Shown here one piece after another: positions 40,801 to 64,000 of a stretch of 64,000 bases of DNA. The stretch's first letter is position 1. Each line of letters starts with the position of its first letter. The notes under the pieces were generated by a model, which saw nothing but the letters and a program-made list of their open reading frames with translations, made no database searches and was not told where the DNA came from. Made by a program: the position numbers and the translations under genes. Source of the stretch: Halobaculum marinum (GTDB lineage: Archaea > Halobacteriota > Halobacteria > Halobacteriales > Haloferacaceae); assembly GCF_029338555.1 (NCBI RefSeq), contig NZ_CP119991.1, positions 124,001 through 188,000 of the forward strand. Reading direction: 5' to 3'.

Positions 40801-41652
40801 ATGACCGGAGAGAACGATCTCTCGACGTTTCTTGGAACGAGCGAGTCCCCCGTCATCGTATATGACGAACATCTGAAAAAGCGTGGTCAGCAGGAACGCG
40901 CACAGCTCCGGAGCATCCCCCTCCTCTACGAATTGGGGGTTGAAGAGTTCGTATACGACGACCTCTGGGCTCGAGAGTTTCGACTCGTCGAACACGGATA
41001 CACGGACCCGAACGACGTGTCTCCAGCGGACGTCTCGTTTCCGCTTGGCCACATCGTCACCACGCCGCAGTTGCTCCCCCGTCACGAACAGGAGTTCGAC
41101 TACGAAGGGATCTCCCAGGCGGACGTTACGTGGGAGTTGCTCCGGGTGGCGAACGAACGGATCGGTGACGGCCAATACGTCCTTGTGACCGATACCGACG
41201 CACCAGAGATACCCTCACGAACCCCGGTCAAGGGTCGATCCGCGGCGGACCAGTTCAACGCCGTCACGTTCGACTATCTCGACCTTGTTCAAGAGTACGT
41301 CTCCAATCACGTCGACTCGGCGCTTCCGTTGGACTACACAAAGAACGTATTCTTCCACAGAGTGTCGGAGCACCACTCGAAACACGGAGCACCAGCGTCA
41401 ACCCTACCGGAACTGTTCGAGTACGACGAAGCACCGGCGGGGAGTCCCGTCTGGGACCCGCTGTACTACTTCCTCGAACACGACCTTCAGGATATCCTCG
41501 ACGAGTATGAGGAGCACGTCATGGAGGCGCTTCGCTCTTGGATCGAGCGGGGCGATACGGGCAAGATCGCGAGACGGATGATTGCGACGCTTCACCGGTG
41601 CGACTTCGACGCGGAACTGCTCGCCGAATATCAGAACGATACCAACCGATGA
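40801..41652 (+). CDS. First gene of operon B, unknown protein
   Basis: A 283-residue acidic soluble protein. No motif recognised. It begins with a possible alpha-beta region (SPVIVYDEHLKKRG, then LLYELGVEEFVYDDLW) and has a helical C-terminal third with repeated Glu and aromatic residues. The stop overlaps the next gene by four bases, so it belongs to operon B. It lacks the HKD motif of DpdK, so it is not that subunit in a recognisable form. Confidence 0.7.
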   Translation: MTGENDLSTFLGTSESPVIVYDEHLKKRGQQERAQLRSIPLLYELGVEEFVYDDLWAREFRLVEHGYTDPNDVSPADVSFPLGHIVTTPQLLPRHEQEFDYEGISQADVTWELLRVANERIGDGQYVLVTDTDAPEIPSRTPVKGRSAADQFNAVTFDYLDLVQEYVSNHVDSALPLDYTKNVFFHRVSEHHSKHGAPASTLPELFEYDEAPAGSPVWDPLYYFLEHDLQDILDEYEEHVMEALRSWIERGDTGKIARRMIATLHRCDFDAELLAEYQNDTNR

Positions 41653-42512
41653 GTTACACCCACGCCACAGGAAAGTCGAGGAAGGACTTAGTCAGCTATC
41701 AGTCGGTCCGTGGAGCGGACGTCAAAGCGATCTTCCAGGAGATATCCGAATTAACCCCACTGAAACAACTGTATTCGGACTTCGGTCGTCCCCGGACGGA
41801 CGGGAACTCGACATCGACCATCGACGACGCCGTTCAGTTCCTCCACGCGATCGATTTCGTGGAACGACCTGACGACCGGACAGTGAAACCGATCGAGGGA
41901 CAACCGTTCGCCGACCTGCCCTTCGAACTTCGAATCCTACACCATCTCAAGCAGCAGTCTGGGAACCAGGAACATTTCATGGAATTGCACCGACTCCTCG
42001 CGAAACAGGACACGCAGTTCTATAACAAGGAACTGCTTGTCGAGGAGGCCAAACGAGAGTTGGAGTACTCGTTCGATTGGAACACCGAGAAGGTCCAAAC
42101 GTGGTACAACCTTGTTGGTCCGCTCGGACTGGTCTCCGTCCACGACAACCAGGAGATCCTCACAAGTCCGTCCCCGCGTCTCGTCTACGACCTCCTTTCG
42201 GCGTTCATGGAGTCAGAAGACGGGTCGAATCGAATCCGTGATGCGCTGAACTGGATCGAGGACCAATTCTGCTCTTGTTTTGCCCAGCGTGGGGGTACAA
42301 CACCGACCGTCCACAGAGGACTCGCTGAGACACTCAGTACGATGCAGTACGACGACTCAGTAACACTCACTTCGATGAGCGATACACACAAAAACGTCTC
42401 AATTCCGACGCTACAATCGAGGACGACAAGTTCGTTCGAAATCGGGGAACGCCCGACAAGACCTGCGTACGAATATCCCCTCGCTGCACACCGGGTGGAG
42501 GTGTCCCAATGA
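41649..42512 (+). CDS. DpdG-like protein (by position and size)
   Basis: A 287-residue protein from the ATG at 41649, chosen for its four-base overlap with the previous stop; the longer frame shadows the previous gene. It is mostly helical with a winged-helix-like part (FELRILHHLKQQSGNQEHFM). Its stop overlaps the ATPase gene by four bases. In Dpd clusters a protein of this size (DpdG) precedes the ATPase DpdH, then DpdI and DpdJ; the same order of sizes is seen here. No residue-level proof. Confidence 0.55.
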   Translation: MSYTHATGKSRKDLVSYQSVRGADVKAIFQEISELTPLKQLYSDFGRPRTDGNSTSTIDDAVQFLHAIDFVERPDDRTVKPIEGQPFADLPFELRILHHLKQQSGNQEHFMELHRLLAKQDTQFYNKELLVEEAKRELEYSFDWNTEKVQTWYNLVGPLGLVSVHDNQEILTSPSPRLVYDLLSAFMESEDGSNRIRDALNWIEDQFCSCFAQRGGTTPTVHRGLAETLSTMQYDDSVTLTSMSDTHKNVSIPTLQSRTTSSFEIGERPTRPAYEYPLAAHRVEVSQ

Positions 42513-45500
42513 GTCTGACCAAAGAGGTTCGACCGTGGGATGATAACGTCGTGAGAGAGTATCTGACGGCGACATCACAACAGAAATCTGACCCGGAGAA
42601 GTTCTACAAGACACACCTCAATATCGACCGGATCTATGCGGAGTTCCTCGCCGATAAACAGGACACGATCGTCACACAGGCGGATCTCCGTGACACGCTT
42701 CTGAGCGGAGAGCTCGACGACGACATCCGTACGTACATCCTGAAGGGTGAAACCGGGTCGGGTAAGAGCCAACTTTGTCAGTGGCTCGATTACGAACTGC
42801 AAGGTCTCGGTCAGGATACGCCGGCCGGTGTTGAGGAACGCATTCCGCTTCACATCAAGGCCAGCGAAACCAGCCTCGAGCGGATCGTCGAGACACTGGC
42901 CGAACCGCTTGGCATCGATCCAGAGATCTCTCAGGTGAGTGGTCTCGATCCCTCTAAGGTCGCGAACGCGATCGCCACGAACCTCTCCGCGAACCCCGGA
43001 CAGAAACTGGAGGACGCGGACATCGACCAGATCATCGAGGAGGGCGATCTCACGGAGATGTTGCGATCGAACATCGAACAGTACCAGCGCGGACTCGAGG
43101 CCGAAGACGAGACCGACTTCGATCCGAACCTCATCTCGAAGGACGACTACCGAGACCTCGCACTGAAGTTAGGAAGCGACAGCGTCTTTCACTCCAACCA
43201 GCGTGTCCTGCGCCAGGTCCTTCGGGACGAGATCCACCGACACTTCTCGCACGTCATCGGTGTCACGGACTTTCAGGGCCAACTCCTGCAGTACACAGAG
43301 CAGTATATAGACGAGATGGGGAAGCGGCCGGTGATCATCTGTGAAGACGTCACTACCTTCTCCGTCCTCAAGGAGCAACTGCTCGACCAGATCATTCAGG
43401 TGGAGAGCGCCTCGTTCGACATTGTCCTCGGATATACCACCGGGTTCGAGCAGGACGACCTCCAGGACGCGCTCGGAGACCGTGAGTCCCAGGACGCACT
43501 CACGTATCTGAAGGACCGTGCGGAGGGGTACATGACGCTCACCGAGAACGGTGAGGCGCTCTTCCTCGACGACGACCTCTCCATCGAACTCGTCCGGAAG
43601 TACCTTGACGTGATCAAAGCTGAGTCTGGCAGTACGATCAACGAGGCGACTGAGAATGCGTTCGATGGACTTTATCCGTTTAACCAGGTCGCCATCCGTG
43701 TCGCGTACGATAACCTCATCGAGGACGGGAGTCCCCGGCGAACACCCAGAGTGCTGTTGCAAAAGGTCGTCCGTCGATGCCTACTCTCGGACGAACCAAC
43801 GTTCGAGACGCTTGACCGGAGCACCAACATTGACGCTGTCATCTCTCCGATCGACCAGGGAAGGTACTCTACTGAGTTACGGAAGATCGCGACTTGGTAC
43901 GGGTACAAGAAGGAAGCGGGCGTTTCCGCGGGCGACAACCCCATTCTCGTCCCCATCGGAGTGCTCGATCACTTCGGGGTCGCTCCCCCAGACGGGCACA
44001 AAAGGTACGAGAGTGAGAAGACCGGTCAAGAGTTCGTCGTCTTCCAACTAAACAAACAGCTCAGCCTGACCGGCGGGGAGAGAGCTCGTCCGTCAGTGCT
44101 CGACAATGGAGGCATTGTTGGCCCCAAGAACGGGCTGAACGCTTCCTTCCTTGACAACGCCGCGCCCGGCGAGAACGCCACAGTTGAGGTGACGGACAAC
44201 GGCTCCGTCATTGAGAACGCAATCGTCACTATCACTCAGAAGGTAGGTGACGAAGAGACGACCAAGACGTACGAGACTGGCGACGATGGGACGGCGACGT
44301 TCGCTGTCGCAGATCACGCCACCGAATTGGCCGTCGAGGTGACCGCAGACGACGCCAAGGCGAAACTCGAACGCGAGTTCGAGATTGGCCCCAAGAACGG
44401 GCTGGACGCTTCCTTCCTTGACAACGCCGCGCCCGGCGAGAACGCCACAGTTGAGGTGACGGACAACGGCTCCGTCATTGAGAACGCAATCGTCACTATC
44501 ACTCAGAAGGTAGGTGACGAAGAGACGACCAAGACGTACGAGACTGGCGACGATGGGGCGGCGACGTTCGCTGTCGCAGATCACGCCACCGAATTGGTCG
44601 TCGAGGTGACAGCAGACGACGCCAAGGCGAAACTCGAACGCAAGTTCGAGACCGTCACTCCCGTTCAACCCGACACCCGTCGCGATATTAGCGCCAGCGT
44701 CCTCGAGTTCAACAATTGGTACGATACCGGCCAAGAGTACGATAGTTCGAACGTCCTCAGATCCGGTGCCGAGGAAGTTCTAGGGAAGTGGTACGACAGT
44801 ACTCGGGTCGCGAACCCGAACGCATCAACCACGGGTGTCGGGGGTATCTACTTCACCCACGGGAGTTCGGTCCCCGTCTCGATCCAGGGTCCCGATGAGC
44901 GCAAGGACCTCTCCGTTATGTTGGAGTTCAACGACGGGAACCGCGACCTCTACTTCGACATCCTTCAGGTTGGAATGCACGACGGCGAGGGCTTCCCGGA
45001 CGACGTAAACGCTGAGCGACTTCACGCTTGGGCGACGGATTCGGTCGTTCAGTTACGACACGACATCCGTGAGCGGGTTGAGTCATGTCTACCAGAGAAT
45101 CTCTCTATCGAACACGTGGTCGTGTTTTCGAAGTTCCTCCTCCGGAACGCGGAGTTTGGCGATCTCGAGATTACGAGAGACCTTGTCTTCGACGAGGGTA
45201 CGCCCAGAGACGACCGTGATTATGATGATCCAATTCGGGCGGCGATCGGGAGCAACAGCCCGCTCGCCGAGCAGCTCAACACCCTCAAGAAGCGTCGGAC
45301 CGACATTACTGCTCTCGTCAACGGGTTCTTCCTCTTAAAAAAGAACCTCGTGGACCATGACCGACTGCGTACAGTCGAACGGGAGGTCGCGGATGACCCG
45401 TCGAAGTACCTCGATCTTGCCCAGCAGATCAACACCGAGGAACTTGACTATCCCAATTGGTACGAGATCGGGACGAATCGCGCTAACGCGAACACCAATG

Positions 45501-46024
45501 TCACGACCTTCCTTGACGCAGTATCCGACTATGCGGTACAAGTGTCATTCCTCTCTGAGGACGACCTTGAAGAGCACTTCGCGGACCACCTGGCCGCTGT
45601 TGAGAGTTGGTTCGATCCGAAGCATACGAAAGCTGACCTTCTGGACGCGTTCGACACACTCGACGAGGCGCTAGGTGTCTTCGACGTGACGAGGGACGGA
45701 GACTGGAAGGAGGCGAAGGCGTCACTCACCACAGATGGACACGACCTCCACCTCAACGAGTTTAATTCGGTCCTTTCGGACCTGAGATCGACGGGCCGAA
45801 ATACTGCGTTTGAGCGACTCGCCTTGCTACACGACTTCCAAGTAAGCCTCGAGACTCACGATGCGTGGGAAGTCTACAAAACTCTCGATGAGATGATCGA
45901 GGTTCTCAGCGATCAGGAAATCGACGACACTGGCGATCTTGAGGAGCAGGTCAAGCAACTGAACGAACTGCGTCAATACGAGCAAGTACGTCAGAACGCA
46001 ATCAAAGCCACGGAGGAGTTCTAA
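42509..46024 (+). CDS. Large P-loop ATPase with tandem Ig-like repeats, DpdH-like
   Basis: A 1171-residue protein. The N-terminal part is a P-loop ATPase: Walker A LKGETGSGKSQL (about residues 77-88) and Walker B RPVIICEDVTTF (about 273-284), of the AAA/STAND kind. At about residues 537-714 lie two nearly identical 89-residue repeats (GPKNGL(N/D)ASFLDNAAPGE, then a beta-rich Ig-like pattern ending KAKLER). The C-terminal 450 residues are helical. ATPases of this size before a coiled-coil protein and a YprA-type helicase match DpdH. ATPase is certain; the DpdH label rests on context. The Ig-like repeats are unusual for a cytosolic protein. Confidence 0.75.
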   Translation: MSLTKEVRPWDDNVVREYLTATSQQKSDPEKFYKTHLNIDRIYAEFLADKQDTIVTQADLRDTLLSGELDDDIRTYILKGETGSGKSQLCQWLDYELQGLGQDTPAGVEERIPLHIKASETSLERIVETLAEPLGIDPEISQVSGLDPSKVANAIATNLSANPGQKLEDADIDQIIEEGDLTEMLRSNIEQYQRGLEAEDETDFDPNLISKDDYRDLALKLGSDSVFHSNQRVLRQVLRDEIHRHFSHVIGVTDFQGQLLQYTEQYIDEMGKRPVIICEDVTTFSVLKEQLLDQIIQVESASFDIVLGYTTGFEQDDLQDALGDRESQDALTYLKDRAEGYMTLTENGEALFLDDDLSIELVRKYLDVIKAESGSTINEATENAFDGLYPFNQVAIRVAYDNLIEDGSPRRTPRVLLQKVVRRCLLSDEPTFETLDRSTNIDAVISPIDQGRYSTELRKIATWYGYKKEAGVSAGDNPILVPIGVLDHFGVAPPDGHKRYESEKTGQEFVVFQLNKQLSLTGGERARPSVLDNGGIVGPKNGLNASFLDNAAPGENATVEVTDNGSVIENAIVTITQKVGDEETTKTYETGDDGTATFAVADHATELAVEVTADDAKAKLEREFEIGPKNGLDASFLDNAAPGENATVEVTDNGSVIENAIVTITQKVGDEETTKTYETGDDGAATFAVADHATELVVEVTADDAKAKLERKFETVTPVQPDTRRDISASVLEFNNWYDTGQEYDSSNVLRSGAEEVLGKWYDSTRVANPNASTTGVGGIYFTHGSSVPVSIQGPDERKDLSVMLEFNDGNRDLYFDILQVGMHDGEGFPDDVNAERLHAWATDSVVQLRHDIRERVESCLPENLSIEHVVVFSKFLLRNAEFGDLEITRDLVFDEGTPRDDRDYDDPIRAAIGSNSPLAEQLNTLKKRRTDITALVNGFFLLKKNLVDHDRLRTVEREVADDPSKYLDLAQQINTEELDYPNWYEIGTNRANANTNVTTFLDAVSDYAVQVSFLSEDDLEEHFADHLAAVESWFDPKHTKADLLDAFDTLDEALGVFDVTRDGDWKEAKASLTTDGHDLHLNEFNSVLSDLRSTGRNTAFERLALLHDFQVSLETHDAWEVYKTLDEMIEVLSDQEIDDTGDLEEQVKQLNELRQYEQVRQNAIKATEEF
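44118..44651 (+). repeat. Tandem 267-bp in-frame duplication within the ATPase gene
   Basis: Two direct copies, 44118-44384 and 44385-44651, each 89 codons. I count only about six or seven base differences, about 97-98 percent identity, so the duplication is recent. It keeps the frame and changes the number of Ig-like domains. Confidence 0.9.
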
Positions 46025-46025: not shown

Positions 46026-46826
46026 ATGAGCGAGTCACCATCACTCAAATCAGCCGTTGAGCAGATCGAGGAGGAAACCGTCCAGAAACGGAACGCCGAA
46101 AATATCGACCAGAAAGTCGACCGAGCCGGAATGCTCATCTCGAGCCTCGAGAGGGATATCGACGCTTTGGAGGGTTCGATCCGAAAACTCCAGTTCTACC
46201 GCGAGATCCTCGACCGTGGGTTCGACATAGCTCCCCCTGGAGACGCGGCGATCAGACGCGCTCGTAGTTCAGTCGCCAAGACGCCGGAGGAGGTCGCCAG
46301 TGCACTCGTCGAAGAGGGACTCGACCAGCAGAGGACTTCCTCGGGGAAATTGAGTGGTGGCCCTCAGTTCGACCGATATCGAGATGAGATTTCGGAAGCC
46401 AAAGAGGACGTTGACAGGGCGGCTGAGCACGCCAGAAACACATATATATCGGAACGGAACGATTGGAAAGAGAAACTCAATTCCGCACAGGACCTCCTAT
46501 ATGCTCTCGGCTCCCAAGAGAAGGACTTCTCGAAGACCATCAGTTGGCTTCGCACGATCGTCACGAGTAAAATGGACGACCCGTCGAACTCCGCTTCGTC
46601 CGTCGTTCAGGAGTGGAAGAGAGCTCGAAAGAAGTGGGAGAAGAGCGAGGAACTCCACGACACGGCAGCCTTCCAGGAGGAGCACGGCATCAGCGACGAG
46701 ACGATGGAGACGATTCTCGAACTCAACCAGCGGACAAATACAACCCTCGCTGACGTCGAATTGAGTACACTACGGGAGATCAAAGAAATCCCACAACTCG
46801 CCGAGTCGGTGAAGATAGAGATCTGA
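46026..46826 (+). CDS. Coiled-coil protein, DpdI-like (by position)
   Basis: A 266-residue protein, mostly helical, with heptad-like stretches at about residues 10-65 and 120-160 and many charged residues. It follows the ATPase gene after one base. Size and place between the ATPase and the large helicase correspond to DpdI in Dpd clusters. No catalytic motif is visible; it probably bridges subunits. Confidence 0.6.
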   Translation: MSESPSLKSAVEQIEEETVQKRNAENIDQKVDRAGMLISSLERDIDALEGSIRKLQFYREILDRGFDIAPPGDAAIRRARSSVAKTPEEVASALVEEGLDQQRTSSGKLSGGPQFDRYRDEISEAKEDVDRAAEHARNTYISERNDWKEKLNSAQDLLYALGSQEKDFSKTISWLRTIVTSKMDDPSNSASSVVQEWKRARKKWEKSEELHDTAAFQEEHGISDETMETILELNQRTNTTLADVELSTLREIKEIPQLAESVKIEI

Positions 46827-46881: not shown

Positions 46882-49800
46882 ATGAACGAACCAGCACACC
46901 ACGCGGAAACAATGCGGGAAGCGTACCAGACGTATCTGCAGGGACGAGGTGGTCTCCCTGCGAAGAGCGTCGCGAGTCGACTACAACCGGACTCGGCTGG
47001 CGAGTCGACACTCGCGGGGATGCGCGGTCCGTATCTTCAAGCGCTTCCCATCGCGAACTGGAGTCACCAGGACTGGTCGACGTTCGCGGGGTCACAGTCG
47101 CTCCACCCCAACATCAAACGCGCATTCCATCAGGAGGGATTCCGTCGTCTCTACGATTTCCAGGAGCGCAGCGTCGAACGAATCCTCGCGGGGGACGATA
47201 CAGTGATCAGCGCCGCGACTGGACGGGGGAAGACCGAGGCGTGGCTCATCCCGATTCTCGACCAGATTGTCAAGTCGAAGACCACGACCGAACAGTCTGG
47301 GCGGACATCGACTAAGGCGCTTTTGATGTATCCCACGAAGGCACTGGCACAGGACCAGTTCAAGCGTTTGGTCCAGATCCTCTATCGAGTTAACCGGAAC
47401 CTCAGGGAGAAGGAATGGGTCACTGTAGGGATTTACGATGGCGACACCCCACGTCATAAGCACGAGTCCAACGCACAGGGGTATCTCAATCGAACCTTCC
47501 AGCACTTCGGTTGCCCGGGAGCGAATGACGACCTCGATAAGTGTCAGTCGTGCGGACAGGGTGTGTTTGTCGAAACCAGTTCGAGCGGCTTCAGACTCCG
47601 ACCCGACAAACCACGCTGTGAAGACGACCGGCCGCACGAAGTCCCCTTAGACTTCGTCCACCTGACCCGGACGGAGTTGATAGAAAACGGCGCGGACATT
47701 ATCCTCACGAACCCCGACACGGTCAACTACCGACTGTTCAACATCAACGGCGAGACCGAACGGGAGGCGTTCATATACGAACCGGAGTTTCTCGTCTTCG
47801 ACGAGGTCCACACCTACGACGGGCTGTTGGGGAGTTACACCGCGACGCTCGTCAAACGACTTCGCCGCCTCCGGGAGCGTCGAGACAGCGATCCGCTCCA
47901 GGTGATCGGGAGCAGTGCGACGGTCGCCAATGACGAGGAATTGTTCAGACAGGTAAGTGGGGCGAGCGAAGTCACATCGGTCAGAGAGGATCCGCGATCG
48001 CTGGATAGCTACGACGTCCAGGTTCCGGAAGCGCTGTATGAGGACATCGTCGATTCCGAGTCGATCGTCGACGCAGGTCGCAGCGATAGCGAACCGCCCA
48101 GCCAGTTCGGAGACGTCGACGTCCAGATCGAGAACGCGAGACACCTCGATAACGACCGATTGGAGGACCAGGTCGCGGACGAACTGTTCAACTATTACAC
48201 TGCTGACAGCACTGACGACCCGGTCATCCAGACTTTCCAAACGCTCTATATGGATTTATCGAGCGAGCCTCGAACACCGAAGGAATTCGTCACTGACACT
48301 GCCGAACGCTTCGATCTCACGCGGGAACAGGCTAGCCGTGTGGTCGAGAACTTCCAAACGGTGGGCCAGTTCGCCGGATTACTTGAAAGCCGCCATCATC
48401 TGTTTTCGTGGCCCCTTGATGGGTTCTATGCATGTGTGTCTTGTGAGGCGGTGTACCGGTCCCCGCAAGACGAGTGTGGCGTCTGTAGTGGTGAGTTCGT
48501 CACACGGGCAACTTACTGTAACAACTGCGGTGAGGAACATCTCGTCGCCGACGCCTGTTCGAACTGCGACCGACTCATCCCCCACGTTCACACTGAGGAG
48601 GGACTGATCGGCGACGAGGAGTTCCAGCCCTGTCCGTTCTGCGGGACCCACGAGGATACTGGGCCTCTTATGCACCGAGTCACTTTCTCGCCGTTCGTTC
48701 GTTGCGCCGACTGCGGCCACGCTGAGCCTCGCTCGATGACTGATAGCTGTGACCGATGCGGGACTCAAGGCGTTCCGACCGACAAGGGGACGTTCGTCTG
48801 CCGTAACCCCTCTTGTGGTCACACGTGGGAACTGACGCGGTCGTGTTCCTCTTGCAGCGGATCGGATCTCCAAGCGGTGGGGCTCAACGGCTCGATCGAA
48901 TGTAGCGACTGCGGTGAGCCCTACAGCGCCGCCGAGGTCCCGACGGACTGTTCGTGCGGGAACAGGGTGACGAATACTCGGTACGTTCCATGGGTGTGTG
49001 CCGACGGCGACTGTGAGGCAGTTCACTTCGAGCAATCATCACCCGAGAGGTGCTCCTGTGGATCGACGGAGTTCGTGAAACGCGGTCTCTATGAGGTGTC
49101 GACTGTTCATACCTGCTCCTCCTGCGACACAGAACACCTCGATGGTGGTGGTTGCGATTGCCCCGACCCCTCCTATCGAACTACGCAGGAGCCGTACCGT
49201 CGATATCGGACGTGGAATGGCGAGCGGCACGTCCGATCGCCACTGGGTATCCCTCAGGCGATCCCGTGTGAGCACAGCCTTCACTCGACAGTAGTTGGGG
49301 ATCCGTACACCGAATTGATGCGAAGTCCGACGAACGCTGCGGTGACGCCCTCCCAATATCTGCTCCGGGATATCGCGAGCGAGGAGGGTCTCAGCGACTC
49401 GAAACTGCTTGCGTTCTCCGACTCGCATCGCGACATGAAAGAGATTGACCGAGCGTTCACGGAACCAGAGGTCGACACGGCGCTCGACCAACTCGTGCTT
49501 GCGGGGTTGGAACTCGCGCTCGCTGGCCGACAGTCGGCAAACCTCGGCAGCACCGATCTGGCAACCCTCACAATCGGAGCGAGCACAAACGAACAACCAC
49601 CGGAGGAAGCAGACTCGATATGGGTGGATCTCGAGAGGGTAGCCGAACACGGCTACGAACTCCTCTCGGCGCTCGAACAGGAACTTGGTGACGGTGATGT
49701 TCGAGACCAGCAGGGAGTCGACCTCGCCAGTACGATCTTCAGTACCGAGTACCTGTCTGACCCCGAATCCGCAGTCAAGGACAAACTTCGACGGCGAGCG

Positions 49801-55421: not shown

Positions 55422-55432
55422 CCCTCGGCGGG

Positions 55433-57127
55433 TTGCTACGGGTACTTGACCGTGATCTCACCGTGCTCGACAGCAACCGTATCCGCGGGAACTTCCAGAG
55501 TTCTGCTCATGATTGGATCGAAGCGTTCGACGAACTCCGCGCTGAGGCCGCTAGTGATGAACTCGATGCATATGTGAAGAATGCTCATGAAAACCTCGAC
55601 GGGCACGATACTGATGAATGGCTTGAGTCGGTGATGGACGTGTTTTACCGGCTCATGGCACACGACCCGTTCAGTACCTGGCGTGAGGAAGACCCTAACC
55701 GTGCGAAGCGACTTGCGACACTTACCAATCTGCTTGAAGCCTTCACCAATATCTACAATGGAAAACTTCGGACATCGGGCCACTATGAGGGGCAGATATC
55801 ACACGGGTGGTTGGTGAACTTCTACTACAACTTTGTCCAGTACGTTGCAAACTCTGGATTCGACGAACCTGAAGATCCCTACGACAAGATCCCGGAGGGA
55901 TTCGCTCAGGTAATGACGGTCCACCAGGCAAAAGGTCTCGAGTTCCCAGTCGTTCTCGCGGCCGACATTGACAAAAGCGATGGTCCTGATGGTACCCACT
56001 TCATGGAGGATGTTCTCGCTCCGTACTCCGACCTCGACACCGACGAGAGTAGCGCCAAAGTCCGTGCAGACGGAGATAACATCCGCCGGTTCTTCGTTCA
56101 GTATTCACGTGCACAGGACGCCCTCGTGTTGGCCGGGGCACGCTCAAATGTTGAGCAGATTGCTCTGGGGAACAGTGCCGATGGGACACCGATTACGCCG
56201 GACGATCTTGAGGCAGCAGGGAGAGTACTCACCGACAGCAATGACTTCTCACGGTTCGACGTGATTGACCGAGAGTTCGACCGAGGTGCCGGAGTCCGGC
56301 GACGGTATAGCGTCACGGGTGATATCCTCTCGTATCGACGGTGTGCCCGCCAATATGGACACTTCTCCGACTACGGGTTTTCACCAGCACAAGCCGCGCA
56401 ATTGTATTTCGGTACTGTCGTCCACGAGACTCTCGATCGGATGCACCAACAGTACCGGGGTCAGTTAGACGAAGTTGAGGCTAGCGTCCCAGAGGAGGCG
56501 GATATTGAGCGATACTTCGAACAGGTCAGTAACGCACTCATCGCCCACGGTACGAAACCGATGAGCGGCGAGGCAAAGGAGCGGGCACTTGAGTATATCA
56601 AGGAATTCAACGAAGAGATGGCTGAGGAACTCTACCCTCGCGTCAAAGACACCGAACACCGTTTGCAGGCCCAACATCAGGACTTCGTAATTGAGGGAAC
56701 TGTGGACGTGCTGATTCGAGAGGATGGCACTGACAGCGAGGAACCAAGCGATTGGGAGATCTGGGATTACAAGGCGTCACAACTCCCGGACAAAGGGAAC
56801 ATCGACTTGGAGAATTACCGCTACCAGATGCAGGTGTACGCCGGACTCTACGAGCAGAAGAACGGTGTTCTACCATCACGTGCTGTGCTCTATTTCATGG
56901 GCGAGTCTGACCCCGAGCAAGCACAGGTGGAGATTGAGTTCGATCGTGATCAGATTGATAGTGCGATGGAGACGTTTAGCTCGACAGTCGGGAGCATCGA
57001 GCGGAGCCGAGAATCTCAAGAATGGAATCCACCTGAGAAGCCCCCATCCAAGGAAACTTGCACGTCTTGCGACCTTCGATGGGACTGCCCTGTAGTTGAG
57101 GATGAGTATCCCATGCGGGCACCCTGA
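55433..57127 (+). CDS. UvrD-like helicase C-terminal part with RecB-type Fe-S nuclease (frameshifted)
   Basis: This frame, open already from about 55272, carries the remaining helicase motifs (MTVHQAKGLEFPVV and RRFFVQYSRAQDALVLAGA) and a C-terminal nuclease of about 290 residues: first Cys in SYRRCARQYGHF, FVIEGTVDVLI, IWDYKAS, YRYQMQVYAGL and the cluster CTSCDLRWDC. So the whole is an AddAB/UvrD-type helicase fused to a Cas4-like nuclease. The gene may be dead, may shift frame, or may be a sequencing error. The two halves are otherwise perfectly conserved in motif, which argues for a very recent change. Confidence 0.8.
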   Translation: MLRVLDRDLTVLDSNRIRGNFQSSAHDWIEAFDELRAEAASDELDAYVKNAHENLDGHDTDEWLESVMDVFYRLMAHDPFSTWREEDPNRAKRLATLTNLLEAFTNIYNGKLRTSGHYEGQISHGWLVNFYYNFVQYVANSGFDEPEDPYDKIPEGFAQVMTVHQAKGLEFPVVLAADIDKSDGPDGTHFMEDVLAPYSDLDTDESSAKVRADGDNIRRFFVQYSRAQDALVLAGARSNVEQIALGNSADGTPITPDDLEAAGRVLTDSNDFSRFDVIDREFDRGAGVRRRYSVTGDILSYRRCARQYGHFSDYGFSPAQAAQLYFGTVVHETLDRMHQQYRGQLDEVEASVPEEADIERYFEQVSNALIAHGTKPMSGEAKERALEYIKEFNEEMAEELYPRVKDTEHRLQAQHQDFVIEGTVDVLIREDGTDSEEPSDWEIWDYKASQLPDKGNIDLENYRYQMQVYAGLYEQKNGVLPSRAVLYFMGESDPEQAQVEIEFDRDQIDSAMETFSSTVGSIERSRESQEWNPPEKPPSKETCTSCDLRWDCPVVEDEYPMRAP

Positions 57128-57244: not shown

Positions 57245-58336
57245 TTAGACTGAGTTCCGTGTTGTCGTCGACCGGATCAGAGACTTTCCTTCGTCAATCG
57301 CGACGTGGGCAAGCACGTCGTATCCTTCTGGTGTGATGTAGAATGCCCCATCAACAACGGTCACAAGTCCGAGCTCCTGCAGATAGTTCCCTACCCAGCG
57401 AACGGCATCAGCTCTAGTTCGCTCACCCCAGGCAGAGCCTTTCCCGACTTTCTTCGCATACCAGTCATCGATATCGTCACGCGCAACAGGGTGGGAGTTC
57501 TTCGAGAGCTCGAACACACTTTGGAGCAGGGCTGCCATGCTGTAGGTGAGATCTGAGAAGAACACATTGTCATAGAGCAAGTCAGTAATCACCTGTGCTT
57601 GCTCCGTTGTGAGTTCCCATCTCGACTCCACCTCATCACCTCCTGCGACGTACGCTTCACCACGGGGTGTGAGGTAGATCCCATCGGAGTCTTCCGTAGT
57701 GAGGCCAAGCGCGTCAGCTTGCTGGACGAACTTTCGAATCCTAGATCTTGGACTGCTCGAGTTCCCCTTGCCAAGTCGATCGTACTCACTTGCGGCGTCT
57801 GTTATCGAAACAGGGTCGTCTCGATCTTCAAGGAATCTGAGGTATTCGTTGAAGAGCCCAAACCGGGCGACTGCCGTCACATCGCCCTTGACTTGGAACT
57901 GTCGAAGGTCACTGAATATCGTGTCATGGAACGCATCGAGAACATCGCCGATCTCGTACGTGACCGCCTCGAGGTCGCTCTGCCTGCACGCAGTTCGGAC
58001 TGACGAGGGGATTGACGGTGCGAGCAAAACTGGGTACAGTGTACGACCCTCGGCGAATTCGGTATTATCTGCTACAGCGTCATAATCCTCTTTGTACCCC
58101 TTCAGTTGAGAGACGTGGTCTTCGGTAGCTTCGACGACCTTCAATTCGATCAGGAGGACCTCCTCGCCCGCGAGAAACACCAGATCAGCTCGGCCACTCG
58201 GTAGTTGCTGCTGTCGCTCGACCAGTCTCAGCGGGGGATCGATGTTGGGAAGCACATTCTCGAGTACCTCAGGGAGTTGCGCAAGGACGTCCTCGACAGC
58301 TCTCTCTGAGGCGGTCTGTGACTGAGCCATGGCCAA
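57245..58336 (-). CDS. PD-(D/E)XK nuclease-like protein with winged helices
   Basis: A 363-residue protein. The N-terminal 110 residues form a PD-(D/E)XK-like fold: SGRADLVFLAGEEVLLIELKVVE with Asp, Glu and Lys in place, then HVSQLKGYKEDYD. The rest contains two or three winged-helix-like repeats (TPRGEAYV and ITPEGYDVLAHV wings). It resembles proteins that pair a NucS/DUF91-like nuclease fold with DNA-binding domains. It is convergent to the UvrD-like gene. It may act in the island's defence, but this is inferred from position. Confidence 0.7.
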   Translation of the reverse strand: MAMAQSQTASERAVEDVLAQLPEVLENVLPNIDPPLRLVERQQQLPSGRADLVFLAGEEVLLIELKVVEATEDHVSQLKGYKEDYDAVADNTEFAEGRTLYPVLLAPSIPSSVRTACRQSDLEAVTYEIGDVLDAFHDTIFSDLRQFQVKGDVTAVARFGLFNEYLRFLEDRDDPVSITDAASEYDRLGKGNSSSPRSRIRKFVQQADALGLTTEDSDGIYLTPRGEAYVAGGDEVESRWELTTEQAQVITDLLYDNVFFSDLTYSMAALLQSVFELSKNSHPVARDDIDDWYAKKVGKGSAWGERTRADAVRWVGNYLQELGLVTVVDGAFYITPEGYDVLAHVAIDEGKSLIRSTTTRNSV

Positions 58337-58651: not shown

Positions 58652-59350
58652 TCAATCCTCCGAATATTCCGGGCATTCGGCGTATTTGATTGGGTCGCGA
58701 ATACTGATGTTCTGGAATGCCTGAAGGCGAAACGCGCAAGCATCACACGTCCCACAGGCGGGTTCTTCATCTTTGTAACAGCTCCATGTTAGTTCGTAAG
58801 GGACGTCGAGTTCGGTCCCAGCCTCAGCGATATCCGTCTTGGACCACTCTACGAACGGAGATTCAATGCTGATCTCGGTTTCGTCTTTTGTGCCGACGTC
58901 GACGACCTCCTGGAAGGCGTCAAAGAACGCGGGCCGACAGTCTGGATAGCCGGAGAAGTCCTCGGAGTGCGCTCCAATGAACACAGCATCACACTCGTTG
59001 GCTTCGGCGTAGGAGGTCGCCATCGCGAGAAGGTTCGCGTTCCGGAACGGCACGTAGGAAGTCGGGATTTCATCGCTTTCGAGGTCGGCTTCCTCGATGT
59101 CTATCTCTTCATCGGTCAAGCTTGAGTCGCCGATCTTCGAAAGGTGATCTGTGGTAAGATGGAGGAAGTCTGCAGCGTCGAAGTAGTCGGCTTGGGCCTT
59201 CGCACACTCATACTCCTTATTTTCTGTCCGTTGGCCATATGAGGTGTGCAGGAGGTAGAGTTCGTAACCCCGATCTTTGGCAATGGCGGCGGCGGTCGCC
59301 GAGTCCATCCCTCCAGAAGCAAGAACCACTGCCCGCTTCGCGCTGCTCAT
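58652..59350 (-). CDS. queC: 7-cyano-7-deazaguanine (preQ0) synthase QueC
   Basis: A 232-residue enzyme, normal length. PP-loop VVLASGGMDSATAAA at the N terminus and the zinc site CYKDEEPACGTCDAC at the C terminus. It converts 7-carboxy-7-deazaguanine, ATP and ammonia to preQ0. Its start overlaps the folE stop by four bases; it is the last gene of the operon queD-queE-folE-queC. In archaea preQ0 normally feeds archaeosine in tRNA; here the adjacent DpdA suggests supply for DNA modification. Confidence 0.96.
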   Translation of the reverse strand: MSSAKRAVVLASGGMDSATAAAIAKDRGYELYLLHTSYGQRTENKEYECAKAQADYFDAADFLHLTTDHLSKIGDSSLTDEEIDIEEADLESDEIPTSYVPFRNANLLAMATSYAEANECDAVFIGAHSEDFSGYPDCRPAFFDAFQEVVDVGTKDETEISIESPFVEWSKTDIAEAGTELDVPYELTWSCYKDEEPACGTCDACAFRLQAFQNISIRDPIKYAECPEYSED

Positions 59351-59949
59351 TGATTCCCCTCCGCACGGGCAACTGCGGCTTGGAACTGTTCGCGTTCGAC
59401 ATCGGTGAGTTCACCGATGGTGGTACGAGTGGTTGTCGTGCTTTCAGTCTCGACGCCGCGCATGGCTTCACAGAGATGGGTGGCATTCATTTCGACCAGT
59501 ACCATTGGTGCGTCAAGTTCCTCAGCAAGGCCAGACGCAAGGTCATTCGTGAGGGATTCCTGCATGGTAAGCTGACGAGACTGCCAGCGGACGTACCGCG
59601 CTATCTTTGATAGTCCAACAACTTCCTCGCTGGGGCGATATGCGACGTGTGCTATCCCGTGGAACGGCAACAAGTGGTGCTCACAGAGCGAGTAGAATGG
59701 AATGCCAGTCTTCACAACGAGGTCATCGTTCTTTGCGTCGAAAGTGCGCATCGTCGGCTTGGCCTCGTGGCGATTACCCTCGGTGAGCGTCGTGAACGCG
59801 TCTGGGATACGGCGCTCCCAAGTGTCTTTGAGGCCCAGCCGATCGGGGTCCTCACCGAGCGATTCGAGGAGGATGCGCGTCCCTCGCTGGGCTTTCTCTC
59901 GGTCAATATTCTCTCCTTCGGGTTGTGTGAGTTGTGAGTGTTGTGTCAT
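59347..59949 (-). CDS. folE: GTP cyclohydrolase I (FolE type)
   Basis: A 200-residue FolE. Zinc ligands are seen in FYSLCEHHLLPFHG (Cys and His) and THLCEAMRGVE (Cys). It turns GTP into 7,8-dihydroneopterin triphosphate, the first step to preQ0. Most archaea use other GTP cyclohydrolase types (MptA or FolE2) for this step, so a bacterial type I enzyme here is a sign of transfer with the preQ0 operon. The gene lies four bases after queE. Confidence 0.95.
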   Translation of the reverse strand: MTQHSQLTQPEGENIDREKAQRGTRILLESLGEDPDRLGLKDTWERRIPDAFTTLTEGNRHEAKPTMRTFDAKNDDLVVKTGIPFYSLCEHHLLPFHGIAHVAYRPSEEVVGLSKIARYVRWQSRQLTMQESLTNDLASGLAEELDAPMVLVEMNATHLCEAMRGVETESTTTTRTTIGELTDVEREQFQAAVARAEGNQ

Positions 59950-59953: not shown

Positions 59954-60733
59954 TTAGGTGGCGGGGGCGTCGTTCCAGAGATCGACGTGAAGTCGGGGTG
60001 TGTAACGGTAGCCGTACTCCATTGCGAGGTCTGCGACTATGTTTCGCGAGTCATCGAGTTGCTCGCGTGTTGTTCCTTCAGGCATCAGGAGGATGTCTGA
60101 ATCAGGGATCGTAGTCGCAGTGGCGTCTCGAATACGTGCGAGCAGATCTTCGATCTCAGGCAGGTCGTCTTCGCCGGTTACAACGAATTTCAACTGCGAG
60201 TCGTAACTCTCGACGAGTCTGGCAAGGGCGTCGATGTCGATGCGGCGTTCTTCGTGGCGGTCAGACCACTCTCGATCACCTTTAGGATCTTTCTCAGGGG
60301 TGGGAGTACTGGAAGCGAGTTTCGGACTGATTCTGGCGAGGTCGATGGGGGCATCGCGATAGATGGTGCCGTTCGTCTCGACGGTCGTGTGATAACCCAA
60401 CTCGTTGAGGCGTTCGAGGAGTTCTACCGAGTGGTCGTGGATGAGCGGTTCACCACCAGTGAGGACGACGTGCTCAGCCATCTCGTGAGACTTGACCTCC
60501 GCAACGATATCTTCGAGGCTCAACTGACCGTGCGTCGGTTCCCACGACGTATGGTATGAGTCGCAGAACCAGCAGCGCAGGTTGCATCCAGAGGTGCGGA
60601 TGAACACGCTGGGGATGCCCGCAAGTGTTCCCTCTCCCTGGAGCGAGTAGAAACACTCGTTGATAGGAAGCATCGCGGCGTCAGAAGTCTCTGCGATCGG
60701 CGATTCGGGATCTAGGGTCGAGTTGACAGGCAT
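59954..60733 (-). CDS. queE: 7-carboxy-7-deazaguanine synthase QueE (radical SAM)
   Basis: A 259-residue radical SAM enzyme. The cluster motif is CNLRCWFC (CxxxCxxC), preceded by SLQGEGTLAG and followed by LTGGEPLIH, both typical of QueE. It converts 6-carboxytetrahydropterin to 7-carboxy-7-deazaguanine. The start overlaps the queD stop by one base (TGATG). A later ATG (MLPINECFYS, about residue 21) could be used instead. Confidence 0.95.
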   Translation of the reverse strand: MPVNSTLDPESPIAETSDAAMLPINECFYSLQGEGTLAGIPSVFIRTSGCNLRCWFCDSYHTSWEPTHGQLSLEDIVAEVKSHEMAEHVVLTGGEPLIHDHSVELLERLNELGYHTTVETNGTIYRDAPIDLARISPKLASSTPTPEKDPKGDREWSDRHEERRIDIDALARLVESYDSQLKFVVTGEDDLPEIEDLLARIRDATATTIPDSDILLMPEGTTREQLDDSRNIVADLAMEYGYRYTPRLHVDLWNDAPAT

Positions 60734-61185
60734 CAGTAACTCCCTGCACAGAGTTCCGAAGTTTCGCGAACGGAGACTGCCACATCAGAGACGCGATCTG
60801 GGAAGACTTGGGAGAGTTTTTCTTCGAGAATAACACCCATCACTTCAGCTGTCGGCGGGTGTTCGAGGATGATGAGTCCATCAGAATCGCCACTAGACTC
60901 AAACGCCTCGACAAGTGGGTCACCAGCCTCAACGAGGAACCGATGGTCCCACTCGTCGATGACGTCTGTGACGTCTCCTTTATCGACGACCCACCCCTCC
61001 TCGGAGAGTGTACCGGTCACTTCCACGGTAATCTCGTAGTTATGGCCGTGGGGCCGATTGCATTTCCCGTCGTGGTGGAGAAGCCGATGCCCGGCGCTGA
61101 TGCGTATCGGCTGGTCGCGGCCGATTTGGAGTGTTCGTTCTCCGGCGTCGACAAGTGGTGACGCGCGCTGTTGTTCGGAAGGCAC
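60733..61185 (-). CDS. queD: 6-carboxytetrahydropterin synthase QueD
   Basis: A 150-residue QueD/PTPS-type enzyme. The signature is HRLLHHDGKCNRPHGHNY, with zinc His residues and the catalytic Cys, then WVVDKGDV and the terminal VRETSELCAGSY with the Glu. It makes 6-carboxytetrahydropterin from the FolE product. It is the first gene of the operon. Confidence 0.95.
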   Translation of the reverse strand: MPSEQQRASPLVDAGERTLQIGRDQPIRISAGHRLLHHDGKCNRPHGHNYEITVEVTGTLSEEGWVVDKGDVTDVIDEWDHRFLVEAGDPLVEAFESSGDSDGLIILEHPPTAEVMGVILEEKLSQVFPDRVSDVAVSVRETSELCAGSY

Positions 61186-61698: not shown

Positions 61699-61730
61699 TA
61701 TAAATGTGTGCTGTAACCGTGAAATGGTGA
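61699..61730 (+). promoter_or_regulatory. Promoter and ribosome binding site of the dpdA-like gene
   Basis: TATAAA at 61699-61704 is followed by GGTGA at 61726-61730, nine bases before the GTG at 61740. GGTGA can pair with the 16S 3' end. The ATG at 61724 opens another frame that ends after 11 codons, and an in-frame TGA at 61728 excludes an earlier start. Confidence 0.5.
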
Positions 61731-61739
61731 ATCGAATCT

Positions 61740-64000
61740 GTGCGATTCTATGTTCCTGAGTGGGACGATGCAGTCGACGCTCACTACGACTTCGAACACG
61801 ACGAACTCTCTACGCTCGACCGCCAGGAGCGTGATCTAAACTATATCTGGGATATCTTCGAACCAGAGACGACACCGATTGACGGTGTGCTTATCTCTCG
61901 CGAACAGGTCGAGGAAACTGATCGAAAGGCCGACCGACTTGCCAAGTACGGCGTCTACGATGATCCAGTACTCTCTGTGCCAAACTGGCTCCCGACAATC
62001 AGCGACTGTGGCGCCTGGGGGTACAAATCCTTGCCTTTCCCTCCCTACGGGAACGAAGAGATGCTATCTTTCTATAAGACACTCAAAGTCACTGTCGGGG
62101 TCACAATCGACCATCTCGTTCTCGGGTCCGGGAAAGAAGAGGGCCGCCTCTACCTCAATGAACGGGCGTTCGATGGCGACATGACGAAGGACGACATTCC
62201 GGACGCGGTAACGGAAGTTGTCGACGTGATGACAGACGAGTGGCCGGAGGAGTGGCCTGCGTACGTTGATGAGTACGAACCTACGATTCGAACGGATGCA
62301 AACAGTGAGATCGAACCGTTCACCGCGGCAGACTTTCAAGGGGAGATTGAGAGCGTACTCGAACGTCTCTCACAGGATCCGCGCGCCGTCTACCGGGAAG
62401 ACGATGCAGAGTTTCGATACGAGCTGACGCTGCGGAACGCCCAAGAGATGTATGCCCTCTATCAGCGGCGTGACTATCCGTTCCGCTTGATGGTCGCGGT
62501 TCAGGGGTGGGATTCCGACTCCTACGCGAGGGCTGCAGAGGAAGTCCTCGATATCGGCTATGACTATCTTGGGATCGGCGGCGTCGCAGGAAGCCCGATT
62601 CACGATGTTCGAGAGATCGTGAAGGCCGTCGGGAAGACGGTGAAAGCGTTTGAACGTGATCATAACACACGTGTGGATTCTCACGTCTTCGGTTTCGCAA
62701 AGACCGAAGGTTTCGAGACAATCGGACGGTCGGGAATGTCGAGTTTCGATAGTGCGAGTATGCTTCGGTCGGCGTGGACCGGAGGAGGGAACTACCGACT
62801 TGATCACGACGAACGCTATGACGCCATTCGTGTCCGCTATCCGTCGAGCAGTGCTAATATTGCGGAGTCTGTCGAGGCATCACTTCGTAGCCGCGAGGTG
62901 CTTGTTGCCCTACGGGCGTACGACGCAGGTGGCTCGATTCGTGATGCCCTCAACGACTGGCATTCATCCTCAGTAGATATTCTCCCGGCGGTCGAACACT
63001 ATCTCCGTGAACACCGTCACGATAACCAGTTTGATGAGCGTCTCTTAGAGGTCGTCGAGGCGGCATTCCGAGAGGACTTCGAATATGGGCGTGAACTACA
63101 GGCGAGTTTCGGCGGCGACCTCCGCCGGAAGCTCGCTAAGCTCCTTCGTGAAGACGGCCCAGAGGATCCGGTTCCGTTCTCTCAATACAGTGATCTACTG
63201 AAGACAGCTGATGAGATATTCGATCAATTCCCACATGCGCCAGTTCTCCTCAACGACTCAGACATAGTGACTGACTACGATCGCGTTTGGGCGATCGTCA
63301 GAGAGTACGCGACATGGGTCGGGGACGACGACCTCTTAGAAGAGTATCAAGAGACACTCCGTGAGCGCCCTTGGGATCGCTGTGACTGTCCACTCTGTCG
63401 TGAGGAAAGTATTGACATCTGTATCTTCCGTGGAAACGATCGAAACCGACGTCGGGGGTTCCACAACACGCGGAGGTTCTACGATGAGTTTGAGGAGGAC
63501 CTACCGAAGATTCTCGTTGCGACGAAGGGTACAGCTAAACTTAGCGGCTTTGAAACTGTCGAAAACTATCTCCGCGATGAGCATCCTGAATTCTGGGAGC
63601 AGACACACGACCTCCCTATTGCTGAACTTGGTATGTTGGATGCAAGTGGTGTGAACGAGTGGTGGGATGACACTCCTTCCATGGCGTCGTTTGACCCCGA
63701 TCGAATGGCCGCAAATATTGGTGAACAGGCCGCACGCTACCAGTATCTTTTCTTACAGGATGATGACGGGTCGATCGACGATGCGGTTATTGAAGCAGCA
63801 CGTGAGAAAGAATGTGCTGTAGAGACATACAGTGATCCAGCCGATCTTCGTGAGCAGGTGTTGGAGACTTGTGGCGAAAACTATGTTGCTGGCGAGGATT
63901 TCCTCCCACATCCACCAGAACTTGATGTGGACAACCTCGACATTTTGGTCATTGACCAGTGCTCTGGATCGAAGGATGTCCCTGATAATGCGCCAGTCTT
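61740..64000 (+). CDS. dpdA: DpdA-type DNA 7-deazaguanine transglycosylase, N-terminal part
   Basis: The frame is open from the GTG at 61740 to the window edge: 753 codons, no stop. It follows the tRNA-guanine transglycosylase plan. The first strand region is VRFYVPEWDD; about residues 247-280 have LMVAVQGWDSD and YLGIGGVAGSP; about residues 320-345 have SHVFGFAKTEGFETIG, then SSFDSASMLRSAW, with Asp337 as candidate nucleophile. A zinc site CDCPLC (about 547-552) and a His (RRGFHNTRRF) follow. Near the edge is VIDQCSGSKD. This is the DpdA pattern: larger than tRNA TGT and acting on DNA, swapping guanine for preQ0. The adjacent preQ0 operon supports this. Further dpd genes may follow beyond the window. 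Confidence 0.9.
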   Translation, partial: MRFYVPEWDDAVDAHYDFEHDELSTLDRQERDLNYIWDIFEPETTPIDGVLISREQVEETDRKADRLAKYGVYDDPVLSVPNWLPTISDCGAWGYKSLPFPPYGNEEMLSFYKTLKVTVGVTIDHLVLGSGKEEGRLYLNERAFDGDMTKDDIPDAVTEVVDVMTDEWPEEWPAYVDEYEPTIRTDANSEIEPFTAADFQGEIESVLERLSQDPRAVYREDDAEFRYELTLRNAQEMYALYQRRDYPFRLMVAVQGWDSDSYARAAEEVLDIGYDYLGIGGVAGSPIHDVREIVKAVGKTVKAFERDHNTRVDSHVFGFAKTEGFETIGRSGMSSFDSASMLRSAWTGGGNYRLDHDERYDAIRVRYPSSSANIAESVEASLRSREVLVALRAYDAGGSIRDALNDWHSSSVDILPAVEHYLREHRHDNQFDERLLEVVEAAFREDFEYGRELQASFGGDLRRKLAKLLREDGPEDPVPFSQYSDLLKTADEIFDQFPHAPVLLNDSDIVTDYDRVWAIVREYATWVGDDDLLEEYQETLRERPWDRCDCPLCREESIDICIFRGNDRNRRRGFHNTRRFYDEFEEDLPKILVATKGTAKLSGFETVENYLRDEHPEFWEQTHDLPIAELGMLDASGVNEWWDDTPSMASFDPDRMAANIGEQAARYQYLFLQDDDGSIDDAVIEAAREKECAVETYSDPADLREQVLETCGENYVAGEDFLPHPPELDVDNLDILVIDQCSGSKDVPDNAPV

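What the first reader, a model, noticed from the sequence alone, without database searches (positions are those of the whole stretch)
40801..64000. Archaeal 7-deazaguanine DNA modification-restriction (Dpd) island
A DpdA-type transglycosylase, a full preQ0 operon (queD, queE, folE, queC) and a separate operon with the sizes and order of DpdG-DpdH-DpdI-DpdJ lie within 23 kb in a haloarchaeon. Seen: TGT motifs and zinc site in DpdA, all four pathway enzymes, the ATPase and the YprA-type helicase. Known: Dpd clusters in bacteria replace guanine in DNA with preQ0 or ADG and restrict unmodified DNA. Inferred: the same function here.
Basis: partly seen in the sequence, partly recalled or inferred. 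Interest (0 to 1): 0.92.

Follow-up and report, generated by a model that had tools for sequence, protein, structure and literature searches.

The report
Haloarchaeal Dpd-type DNA-marking island, DpdB-less variant
A salt-loving archaeon carries a gene island that very probably swaps guanines in its DNA for a modified base and attacks DNA without the mark; it resembles a known bacterial system but replaces one of its parts with a second base-swapping enzyme, a DNA-binding-like protein and a BREX-type ATPase.

Summary
61740-64000 is the start of a 968-aa protein (ends at 64646, beyond the window) that passes the curated DpdA cut-off, keeps all catalytic and zinc residues, and has a DpdC-like domain fused at its C-terminus. 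A second, paralogous preQ0 operon (queD-queE-folE-queC) lies next to it. In the left operon, DpdH and DpdJ are real but divergent homologues; DpdG is weakly supported; DpdI rests on position only. R299, the marker of that trio, is in 55 of 56 DpdA-positive haloarchaeal genomes (of 391 searched), while DpdB reaches its cut-off in none. So this is a Dpd-type DNA deazaguanine system in a DpdB-less haloarchaeal form. A DpdA homologue in Haloarcula vallismortis was already published (2019). The same full cluster, DpdA-DpdC fusion included, lies on that contig and supplies a candidate for the 'unidentified protein' behind the dADG found in halovirus HVTV-1 DNA. Restriction is inferred; no DNA chemistry could be tested here.

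The parts
36359..39100 (-). Second, shorter DpdJ-type DEAD/DEAH helicase (913 aa), possibly an alternative restriction-module helicase
   Evidence: PADLOC DpdJ 201.9 bits; 28% identity over 803 aa to the DpdJ of Scytonema. Next to BrxD on the same strand in G349. Link to the island is inferred.
39097..40173 (-). 358-aa predicted coiled-coil-like protein paired with the helicase above
   Evidence: 4-bp overlap with the helicase gene; homologue adjacent to the same helicase in G349; no informative family
40801..41652 (+). B1, 283 aa, first gene of the restriction-like operon; no known family
   Evidence: Conserved before B2-DpdH in 6 other haloarchaeal islands, about 40% identity; AlphaFold model poor, pLDDT 58
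41649..42512 (+). B2, DpdG-like (weak)
   Evidence: Directly upstream of dpdH, as dpdG is in bacteria. Best of 27 profile comparisons is DpdG, full length, score 30.3; the best of 30 column-shuffled controls scored 17.9. HHalign probability only 12%.
42509..46024 (+). DpdH-like ATPase, 1171 aa: N-terminal P-loop region, Ig-like insert, C-terminal region
   Evidence: NCBIfam DpdH 44.8 bits, cut-off 450; HHalign 98.9% to bacterial DpdH over residues 1-491; full-length homologues in 39 of 391 haloarchaea, all with R299
46026..46826 (+). B4, 266 aa, in the position of DpdI
   Evidence: Position and size only; no profile similarity to DpdI
46882..52476 (+). DpdJ-like helicase, 1864 aa
   Evidence: NCBIfam DpdJ 124.7 bits, cut-off 800; PADLOC DruE1 160 and DpdJ 134.5 bits
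54036..55421 (+). UvrD-type helicase, N-terminal half
   Evidence: PF00580; 41% identity over 395 aa to the UvrD protein beside dpdA in Scytonema NIES-4073
55433..57127 (+). UvrD C-terminal half fused to a PD-(D/E)XK nuclease; candidate restriction nuclease
   Evidence: PF12705 and PF13361; nuclease part 38% identical over 311 aa to a protein in the Scytonema dpd cluster; paired proteins also near Picosynechococcus dpdA
57245..58336 (-). NucS-like protein downstream of queC; candidate nuclease
   Evidence: Weak NucS hit, 34.8 bits; a 41% identical homologue follows queC in the divergent cluster of G131
58652..59350 (-). queC
   Evidence: TIGR00364 188 bits; 67% identical to the chromosomal QueC
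59347..59949 (-). folE, GTP cyclohydrolase I
   Evidence: 167.5 bits; the only GTP cyclohydrolase I in the genome
59954..60733 (-). queE
   Evidence: QueE families, best 97.8 bits; 61% identical to a chromosomal QueE
60733..61185 (-). queD
   Evidence: TIGR03367 74 bits
61740..64000 (+). dpdA-dpdC fusion gene, runs on to 64646: DpdA transglycosylase (residues 1-590) and DpdC/DUF6884 domain (about 730-968). The unit continues beyond the window on the same strand (contig C3 coordinates): TGT2 193781-194815, R299 194812-195711, BrxD-like ATPase 195708-196865.
   Evidence: NF041059 265.5 bits; phmmer E=3.5e-39 to the solved DNA-guanine transglycosylase 7UI4; DUF6884 and PADLOC DpdC; separate 233-aa DpdC ORFs in 7 relatives. 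TGT2: PF01702 91.4 bits, no PUA, catalytic and zinc residues invariant in 19 sequences. R299: no family in the libraries scanned, model pLDDT 81, winged-helix hits. BrxD-like: PF10923 58.2 bits, cut-off 22.2.

Best explanation
A horizontally spread DNA modification-restriction island of the Dpd kind in a DpdB-less haloarchaeal form. Island FolE, QueD, QueE and QueC make preQ0 (family assignment shown; flux inferred). The DpdA domain exchanges selected guanines in DNA for preQ0, together with TGT2; the R299 winged-helix protein and the BrxD-like ATPase choose or open the DNA target and take the place of DpdB (inferred). The fused DpdC domain turns dPreQ0 into dADG on the DNA (inferred from the family). 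The left operon (B1, DpdG-like, DpdH, B4, DpdJ-like), with the UvrD/PD-(D/E)XK pair or the NucS-like protein as possible cutter, attacks DNA that lacks the mark (inferred from homology to the bacterial restriction operon).
For: DpdA passes the curated cut-off, keeps every catalytic and zinc residue in 28 sequences and falls with bacterial DpdA in a tree. DpdC domain: fused C-terminally here, a separate adjacent 233-aa ORF in seven relatives, fused N-terminally in cyanobacteria and Paenibacillus, with shared motifs. Chromosomal TgtA, ArcS and a second QueC exist, so the island set is not the tRNA pathway. DpdA and R299 share 55 genomes, with 56 and 57 carriers of 391; DpdH and DpdA share 38 of 39. 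DpdA-TGT2-R299-BrxD is one contiguous operon in 16 of 20 neighbourhoods read. G+C drops to 52-58% in the main island blocks against 62% on both sides. External chemistry: HVTV-1, which has no dpdA, grown in H. vallismortis, contains 152 dADG and 22 dG+ per million nt besides dPreQ1 (PMC6884629); that host carries this same cluster on AOLQ01000002.
Against: No DpdB over cut-off in any of 56 carriers, although DpdB is described as needed in the bacterial model system. DpdH and DpdJ are far below equivalog cut-offs; DpdI is not detectable and DpdG is weak. DpdD, E, F and K were not seen among the island proteins scanned. 18 of 56 DpdA genomes lack a full-length DpdH, so restriction is not obligatory. 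In this genome TGT2-R299-BrxD is separated from dpdA by 5 kb holding an Orc1 gene. The HVTV-1 data are viral DNA, not host DNA, and the authors also allow chemical oxidation as the source of dADG. Co-occurrence P values ignore relatedness.
Confidence: 0.83

Rival explanations
1. Modification only: the island marks host DNA with dPreQ0 or dADG for regulation or to protect mobile DNA, and the left operon is an unrelated neighbouring defence system (Druantia- or BREX-like helicase operon).
For: 18 of 56 DpdA genomes lack DpdH. The 1864-aa helicase scores higher on Druantia DruE1 (160 bits) than on DpdJ (134.5).
Against: 38 of 39 full-length DpdH genomes carry DpdA; DpdH profile match 98.9% to the Dpd family; the two modules lie within 20 kb in about half of the neighbourhoods read.
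Confidence: 0.2
2. A tRNA archaeosine or other RNA pathway: the TGTs modify tRNA or another RNA and the que genes simply boost preQ0.
For: TGT2 is closest to archaeosine TGT (142 bits; 31% identity to the own TgtA).
Against: The genome has its own TgtA and ArcS; Pfam sees no PUA domain in DpdA or TGT2; DpdA belongs to the DNA-specific family with a solved DNA-guanine transglycosylase; helicases and nucleases surround it.
Confidence: 0.05
3. A BREX-related capture (BRC-like) system that recruited a TGT, as described in PMC12839542, rather than a Dpd system.
For: BrxD-like ATPase adjacent to a TGT; those authors propose that a STAND ATPase stands in for DpdB in BRC systems.
Against: No PglZ anywhere in the genome; DpdA proper, DpdC, DpdH and a dedicated preQ0 operon are present, and that paper reports no DpdB or DpdC in BRC systems.
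Confidence: 0.05

Closest known systems
Bacterial Dpd (7-deazaguanine in DNA) islands, dpdA-K, Salmonella Montevideo type
   Same: DpdA transglycosylase, DpdC-type domain, preQ0 genes nearby, DpdH and DpdJ homologues in a separate operon with the same order
   Different: No DpdB; DpdC fused to the C-terminus of DpdA; second transglycosylase; R299 and BrxD-like ATPase; DpdI not recognisable; DpdD/E/F/K not seen in the island
Two-TGT dpd clusters of Paenibacillus sp. 37, Nostoc NIES-3756 and Picosynechococcus PCC 73109
   Same: DpdC-DpdA fusion protein plus a second small TGT in one cluster; a UvrD plus PD-(D/E)XK pair nearby in Picosynechococcus
   Different: Domain order is DpdC-DpdA, not DpdA-DpdC; no R299; helicases or a DpdH-like NTPase flank TGT2 instead
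DpdA homologue of Haloarcula vallismortis (EMA11768, PMC6884629)
   Same: Same contig, same cluster, DpdA-DpdC 75% identical to this one
   Different: Published only as a DpdA homologue as far as the passages read show; the fused DpdC domain, TGT2, R299 and BrxD-like ATPase were not described there
BREX-related capture (BRC) systems with TGT (PMC12839542)
   Same: BREX-type ATPase next to a TGT
   Different: BRC has PglZ, a BrxC-like protein and HerA; none was seen in this island, and PglZ is absent from the genome

Membership tests
Dpd system | DpdA-family transglycosylase with catalytic Asp pair and zinc site | tested here: met
   265.5 bits against cut-off 200; residues invariant; tree
Dpd system | DpdB (DGQHR/ParB-like ATPase) | tested here: not met
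   Not in this genome; no match over cut-off in 56 DpdA-positive haloarchaeal genomes, two weak ones
Dpd system | DpdC (dADG formation) | tested here: met
   DUF6884 and PADLOC DpdC hits on residues about 734-890; aligned motifs with bacterial DpdC. DUF6884 scores right at its gathering cut-off (30.0).
Dpd system | preQ0 supply (queD, queE, queC, folE) linked or in the genome | tested here: met
Dpd system | Restriction operon dpdD-K | tested here: inconclusive
   DpdH and DpdJ homologous but below equivalog cut-offs; DpdG weak; DpdI undetected; D, E, F, K not among the scanned island ORFs; not searched genome-wide
Dpd system | dPreQ0 or dADG in genomic DNA and restriction of unmodified DNA | not testable with these tools
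   Needs nucleoside mass spectrometry and transformation assays
Archaeosine tRNA-guanine transglycosylase (TgtA) | PUA and C-terminal tRNA-binding domains on the transglycosylase | tested here: not met
   Pfam shows only the TGT domain in TGT2, and TGT plus DUF6884 in DpdA
BREX / BRC | PglZ | tested here: not met
   No PF08665 match in the whole genome
BREX / BRC | BrxC/BrxD-type ATPase | tested here: met
   PF10923 58.2 bits against 22.2

The most novel reading that the evidence does not exclude
A hybrid of Dpd and BREX logic: two catalytically intact transglycosylases of different ancestry (DpdA, and TGT2 from the archaeosine-TGT side) work as one machine on DNA, with target choice by a multi-winged-helix protein and an AAA+ ATPase instead of DpdB. 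It is a separate class of DNA deazaguanylation in archaea that viruses such as HVTV-1 hijack to modify about 30% of their guanines.
Probability: 0.35. Interest if true: 0.78.

Novelty: new variant of a known kind. Interest (0 to 1): 0.62.

Why it matters
The dpd survey read here covers bacteria only and required dpdB (PMC11888242), so it would miss this form, which occurs in about 14% of sampled haloarchaeal species. It gives archaea a candidate host-encoded DNA deazaguanine system, replaces the least understood part (DpdB) by three defined proteins, and offers a concrete, testable source for the unexplained dADG, and possibly for the DpdA-independent dPreQ1, in the DNA of halovirus HVTV-1. 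Culturable carriers are known (Haloferax gibbonsii, Haloferax alexandrinus, Haloarcula vallismortis), so gene deletion plus mass spectrometry is realistic. Carriers in the PLSDB records are annotated as 'queuine tRNA-ribosyltransferase' or 'hypothetical protein', so the system is hidden in databases.

Tried and rejected
AlphaFold of B1 (7 sequences) gave pLDDT 58 and was not used. Profile comparisons of B1, B4 and R299 with every protein of nine bacterial dpd loci gave nothing. PHROGs had no family for TGT2, R299, B1, B2 or B4. Viral contig scans: one weak hit for TGT2, none for DpdA; the DpdA scan used single-sequence patterns and finds close relatives only. BREX membership rejected for lack of PglZ. 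The DpdH search at E 1e-3 returned 294 genomes; most of the weak ones match only the Ig-like middle segment, so only matches outside it at E<1e-100 were counted. Key Dpd papers (Thiaville 2016, Yuan 2018, Gedara 2023) are not held in the library, so statements on bacterial DpdB/DpdC roles rest on PMC12839542, PMC11888242 and general knowledge. An earlier mention of archaeal dpd clusters in those papers cannot be excluded.
Full report
WHAT WAS CLAIMED AND WHAT IS THERE. The window is bases 124001-188000 of a 326,684-base contig (C3) in a 3.5 Mb genome of class Halobacteria (neighbours). The last one is cut by the window edge; the contig continues and the gene ends at 64646, giving 968 aa.

DPDA. 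The protein scores 265.5 bits on NCBIfam DpdA (cut-off 200) and only weakly on tRNA TGT models. Its one relative among solved structures is 7UI4, DNA-guanine transglycosylase, E=3.5e-39. In an alignment of 28 distinct DpdA proteins from haloarchaea and bacteria, D89, D337, G280-G281, H315 and the zinc ligands C548, C550, C553 and H575 are invariant. In a tree it falls with bacterial DpdA, apart from the genome's own archaeosine TGT (the dividing branch has moderate support, 79/95, and some long branches).

FUSED DPDC. Residues about 734-890 match DUF6884 and several PADLOC DpdC models. In seven of 20 relatives the same domain is a separate ORF of 231-241 aa directly downstream of a 720-738-aa DpdA. 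In Nostoc, Scytonema, Picosynechococcus, Allocoleopsis and Paenibacillus the domain is fused to the N-terminus of DpdA instead. Two opposite fusion orders plus an adjacent split form are strong contextual evidence that the two activities act together. Motifs around C741, Y782, SAG 810-812 and PY 824-825 are shared with most or all of the dpdC products of Enterobacter, Agrobacterium and Caulobacter clusters.

PREQ0 OPERON. queD, queE, folE and queC are confirmed. The chromosome has its own QueC (67% identical) and QueE (61%), TgtA and ArcS, so the island set is paralogous. Its folE is the only GTP cyclohydrolase I in the genome; Haloferax volcanii, a control genome, has none by the same search.

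THE PART BEYOND THE WINDOW. Five kb to the right (an Orc1 gene and small ORFs lie between) three genes with 4-bp overlaps encode TGT2 (344 aa), R299 (299 aa) and a BrxD-like ATPase (385 aa; PF10923 58.2 bits); in window numbering continued past the edge they are 69781-70815, 70812-71711 and 71708-72865. TGT2 is nearest to archaeosine TGT but has only the catalytic domain, with both Asp residues and all four zinc ligands invariant in 19 sequences. R299 has no family. A confident model (pLDDT 81) resembles tandem winged-helix proteins such as RPC62 and FokI; the whole-chain TM scores are low, so only the winged-helix nature is claimed. In 40-kb neighbourhoods of 20 other DpdA-bearing genomes, DpdA-TGT2-R299-BrxD is a contiguous same-strand set in 16; three more have the trio within about 16 kb, and the last has it beside a second DpdA elsewhere.

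CO-OCCURRENCE. Of 391 haloarchaeal genomes, 56 have strong DpdA and 57 have R299; 55 have both. Full-length DpdH is in 39, of which 38 have DpdA and all 39 have R299. Fisher P values are below 1e-37 but ignore relatedness; the R299 carriers span 37 genera. DpdB reaches its cut-off in none of the 56 DpdA genomes. Two genomes of one genus have sub-threshold DpdB-like matches, 3.5-12 kb from dpdA. A pattern scan of 84,980 species genomes for R299 found it only in Halobacteria.

LEFT OPERON. DpdH: profile match 98.9% to bacterial DpdH over residues 1-491. DpdJ-like helicase: 124.7 bits on DpdJ, far below the equivalog cut-off, and also close to Druantia DruE. The gene before dpdH matches DpdG best of 27 comparisons, full length, above 30 shuffles, but with only 12% probability; second best is the Paenibacillus protein directly upstream of its DpdH-like NTPase. 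The gene between dpdH and dpdJ has no detectable relation to DpdI. B1 is new. The UvrD/PD-(D/E)XK pair at 54036-57127 has counterparts next to dpdA in Scytonema and Picosynechococcus, and a fused version sits between the two operons in G010, so it is probably part of the system. A NucS-like gene follows queC here and in the divergent cluster of G131.

MECHANISM. Shown by sequence: a complete preQ0 pathway, two transglycosylases with intact active sites, a DpdC-type domain, two ATPases, DpdJ-type helicases and nuclease candidates. Inferred: preQ0 goes into DNA by base exchange; R299 plus ATPase replace DpdB; the DpdC domain makes dADG; the left operon restricts unmarked DNA. PMC12839542 makes the parallel suggestion that a STAND ATPase substitutes for DpdB in a different system.

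PUBLISHED CHEMISTRY THAT BEARS ON IT. Hutinet et al. 2019 (PMC6884629) noted a DpdA homologue in Haloarcula vallismortis (EMA11768, AOLQ01000002). They found 88,607 dPreQ1, 152 dADG and 22 dG+ per million nucleotides in HVTV-1, which infects that host and has no DpdA, and invoked host DpdA plus 'another unidentified protein' for dADG. That contig carries queC-folE-queE-queD, the DpdA-DpdC fusion (75% identical to this one), TGT2 (84%), R299 (67%) and BrxD-like (82%). The fused DpdC domain is therefore a candidate for the unidentified protein. This is a hypothesis; the authors also mention oxidation of dPreQ0.

NOVELTY. Not a new kind of chemistry. The dpd survey that could be read covers eight bacterial phyla and required dpdA and dpdB (PMC11888242). 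No description of the haloarchaeal cluster was found in the library, but the main Dpd papers are not held there. Hence: new variant of a known kind, with part of it (a DpdA homologue in one haloarchaeon) already on record.

Noticed in passing
L133:9139-41208 (Haladaptatus sp. YSMS36 plasmid NZ_CP119784.1) and L132:4133-6735 (Natrinema sp. SYSU A 869): A second, different haloarchaeal deazaguanine-like cluster: three TGT genes, a small DUF6884 protein, a DpdK-like PLD protein, a DpdJ-like helicase and a 518-aa ATPase next to a PUA-less TGT with intact motifs. No gene annotated DpdA was seen in the stretch. The TGT-ATPase pair recurs in Natrinema.
   Followed up: partly
window 36359-40173: A 913-aa DpdJ-type helicase with a 358-aa partner lies divergent from the left operon and scores higher on PADLOC DpdJ than the 1864-aa helicase does; in G349 the pair directly follows BrxD.
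   Followed up: partly
window 26100-34275: Two very large genes on the minus strand with PD-(D/E)XK nuclease domains, one also with helicase/AAA domains (1595 and 1091 aa); possibly another defence module.
   Followed up: no
L087:19142-19801 and L130:29540-30190: A gene annotated csa3 (CARF-domain regulator) stands next to the DpdH operon in Natronorubrum aibiense and Haloferax alexandrinus, hinting at regulation by a CARF ligand.
   Followed up: no
window 42509-46024: DpdH of this genome carries an Ig-like middle segment (about residues 470-720) common in haloarchaeal surface proteins, so records call homologues 'S-layer protein'; many relatives lack it.
   Followed up: partly
L086:9573-11543: Deinococcus taeanensis plasmid: a DUF6884-TGT fusion protein next to dpdE, dpdF and dpdH, with no separate dpdA in the stretches read.
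   Followed up: no
G162:C4:122047-123102 and G273:C1:843077-844132: DpdB-like (DGQHR) genes below cut-off within 3.5-12 kb of dpdA in two genomes of one genus.
   Followed up: no
L006:2327-11962: A 3211-aa protein with weak TraD/HerA-like motifs lies to the right of the island with a VWA protein nearby, like parts of a conjugation or large ATPase locus.
   Followed up: no
window 10892-12220: TnpB-like gene (Cas12f1-like TNB domain), sign of insertion sequences left of the island.
   Followed up: no
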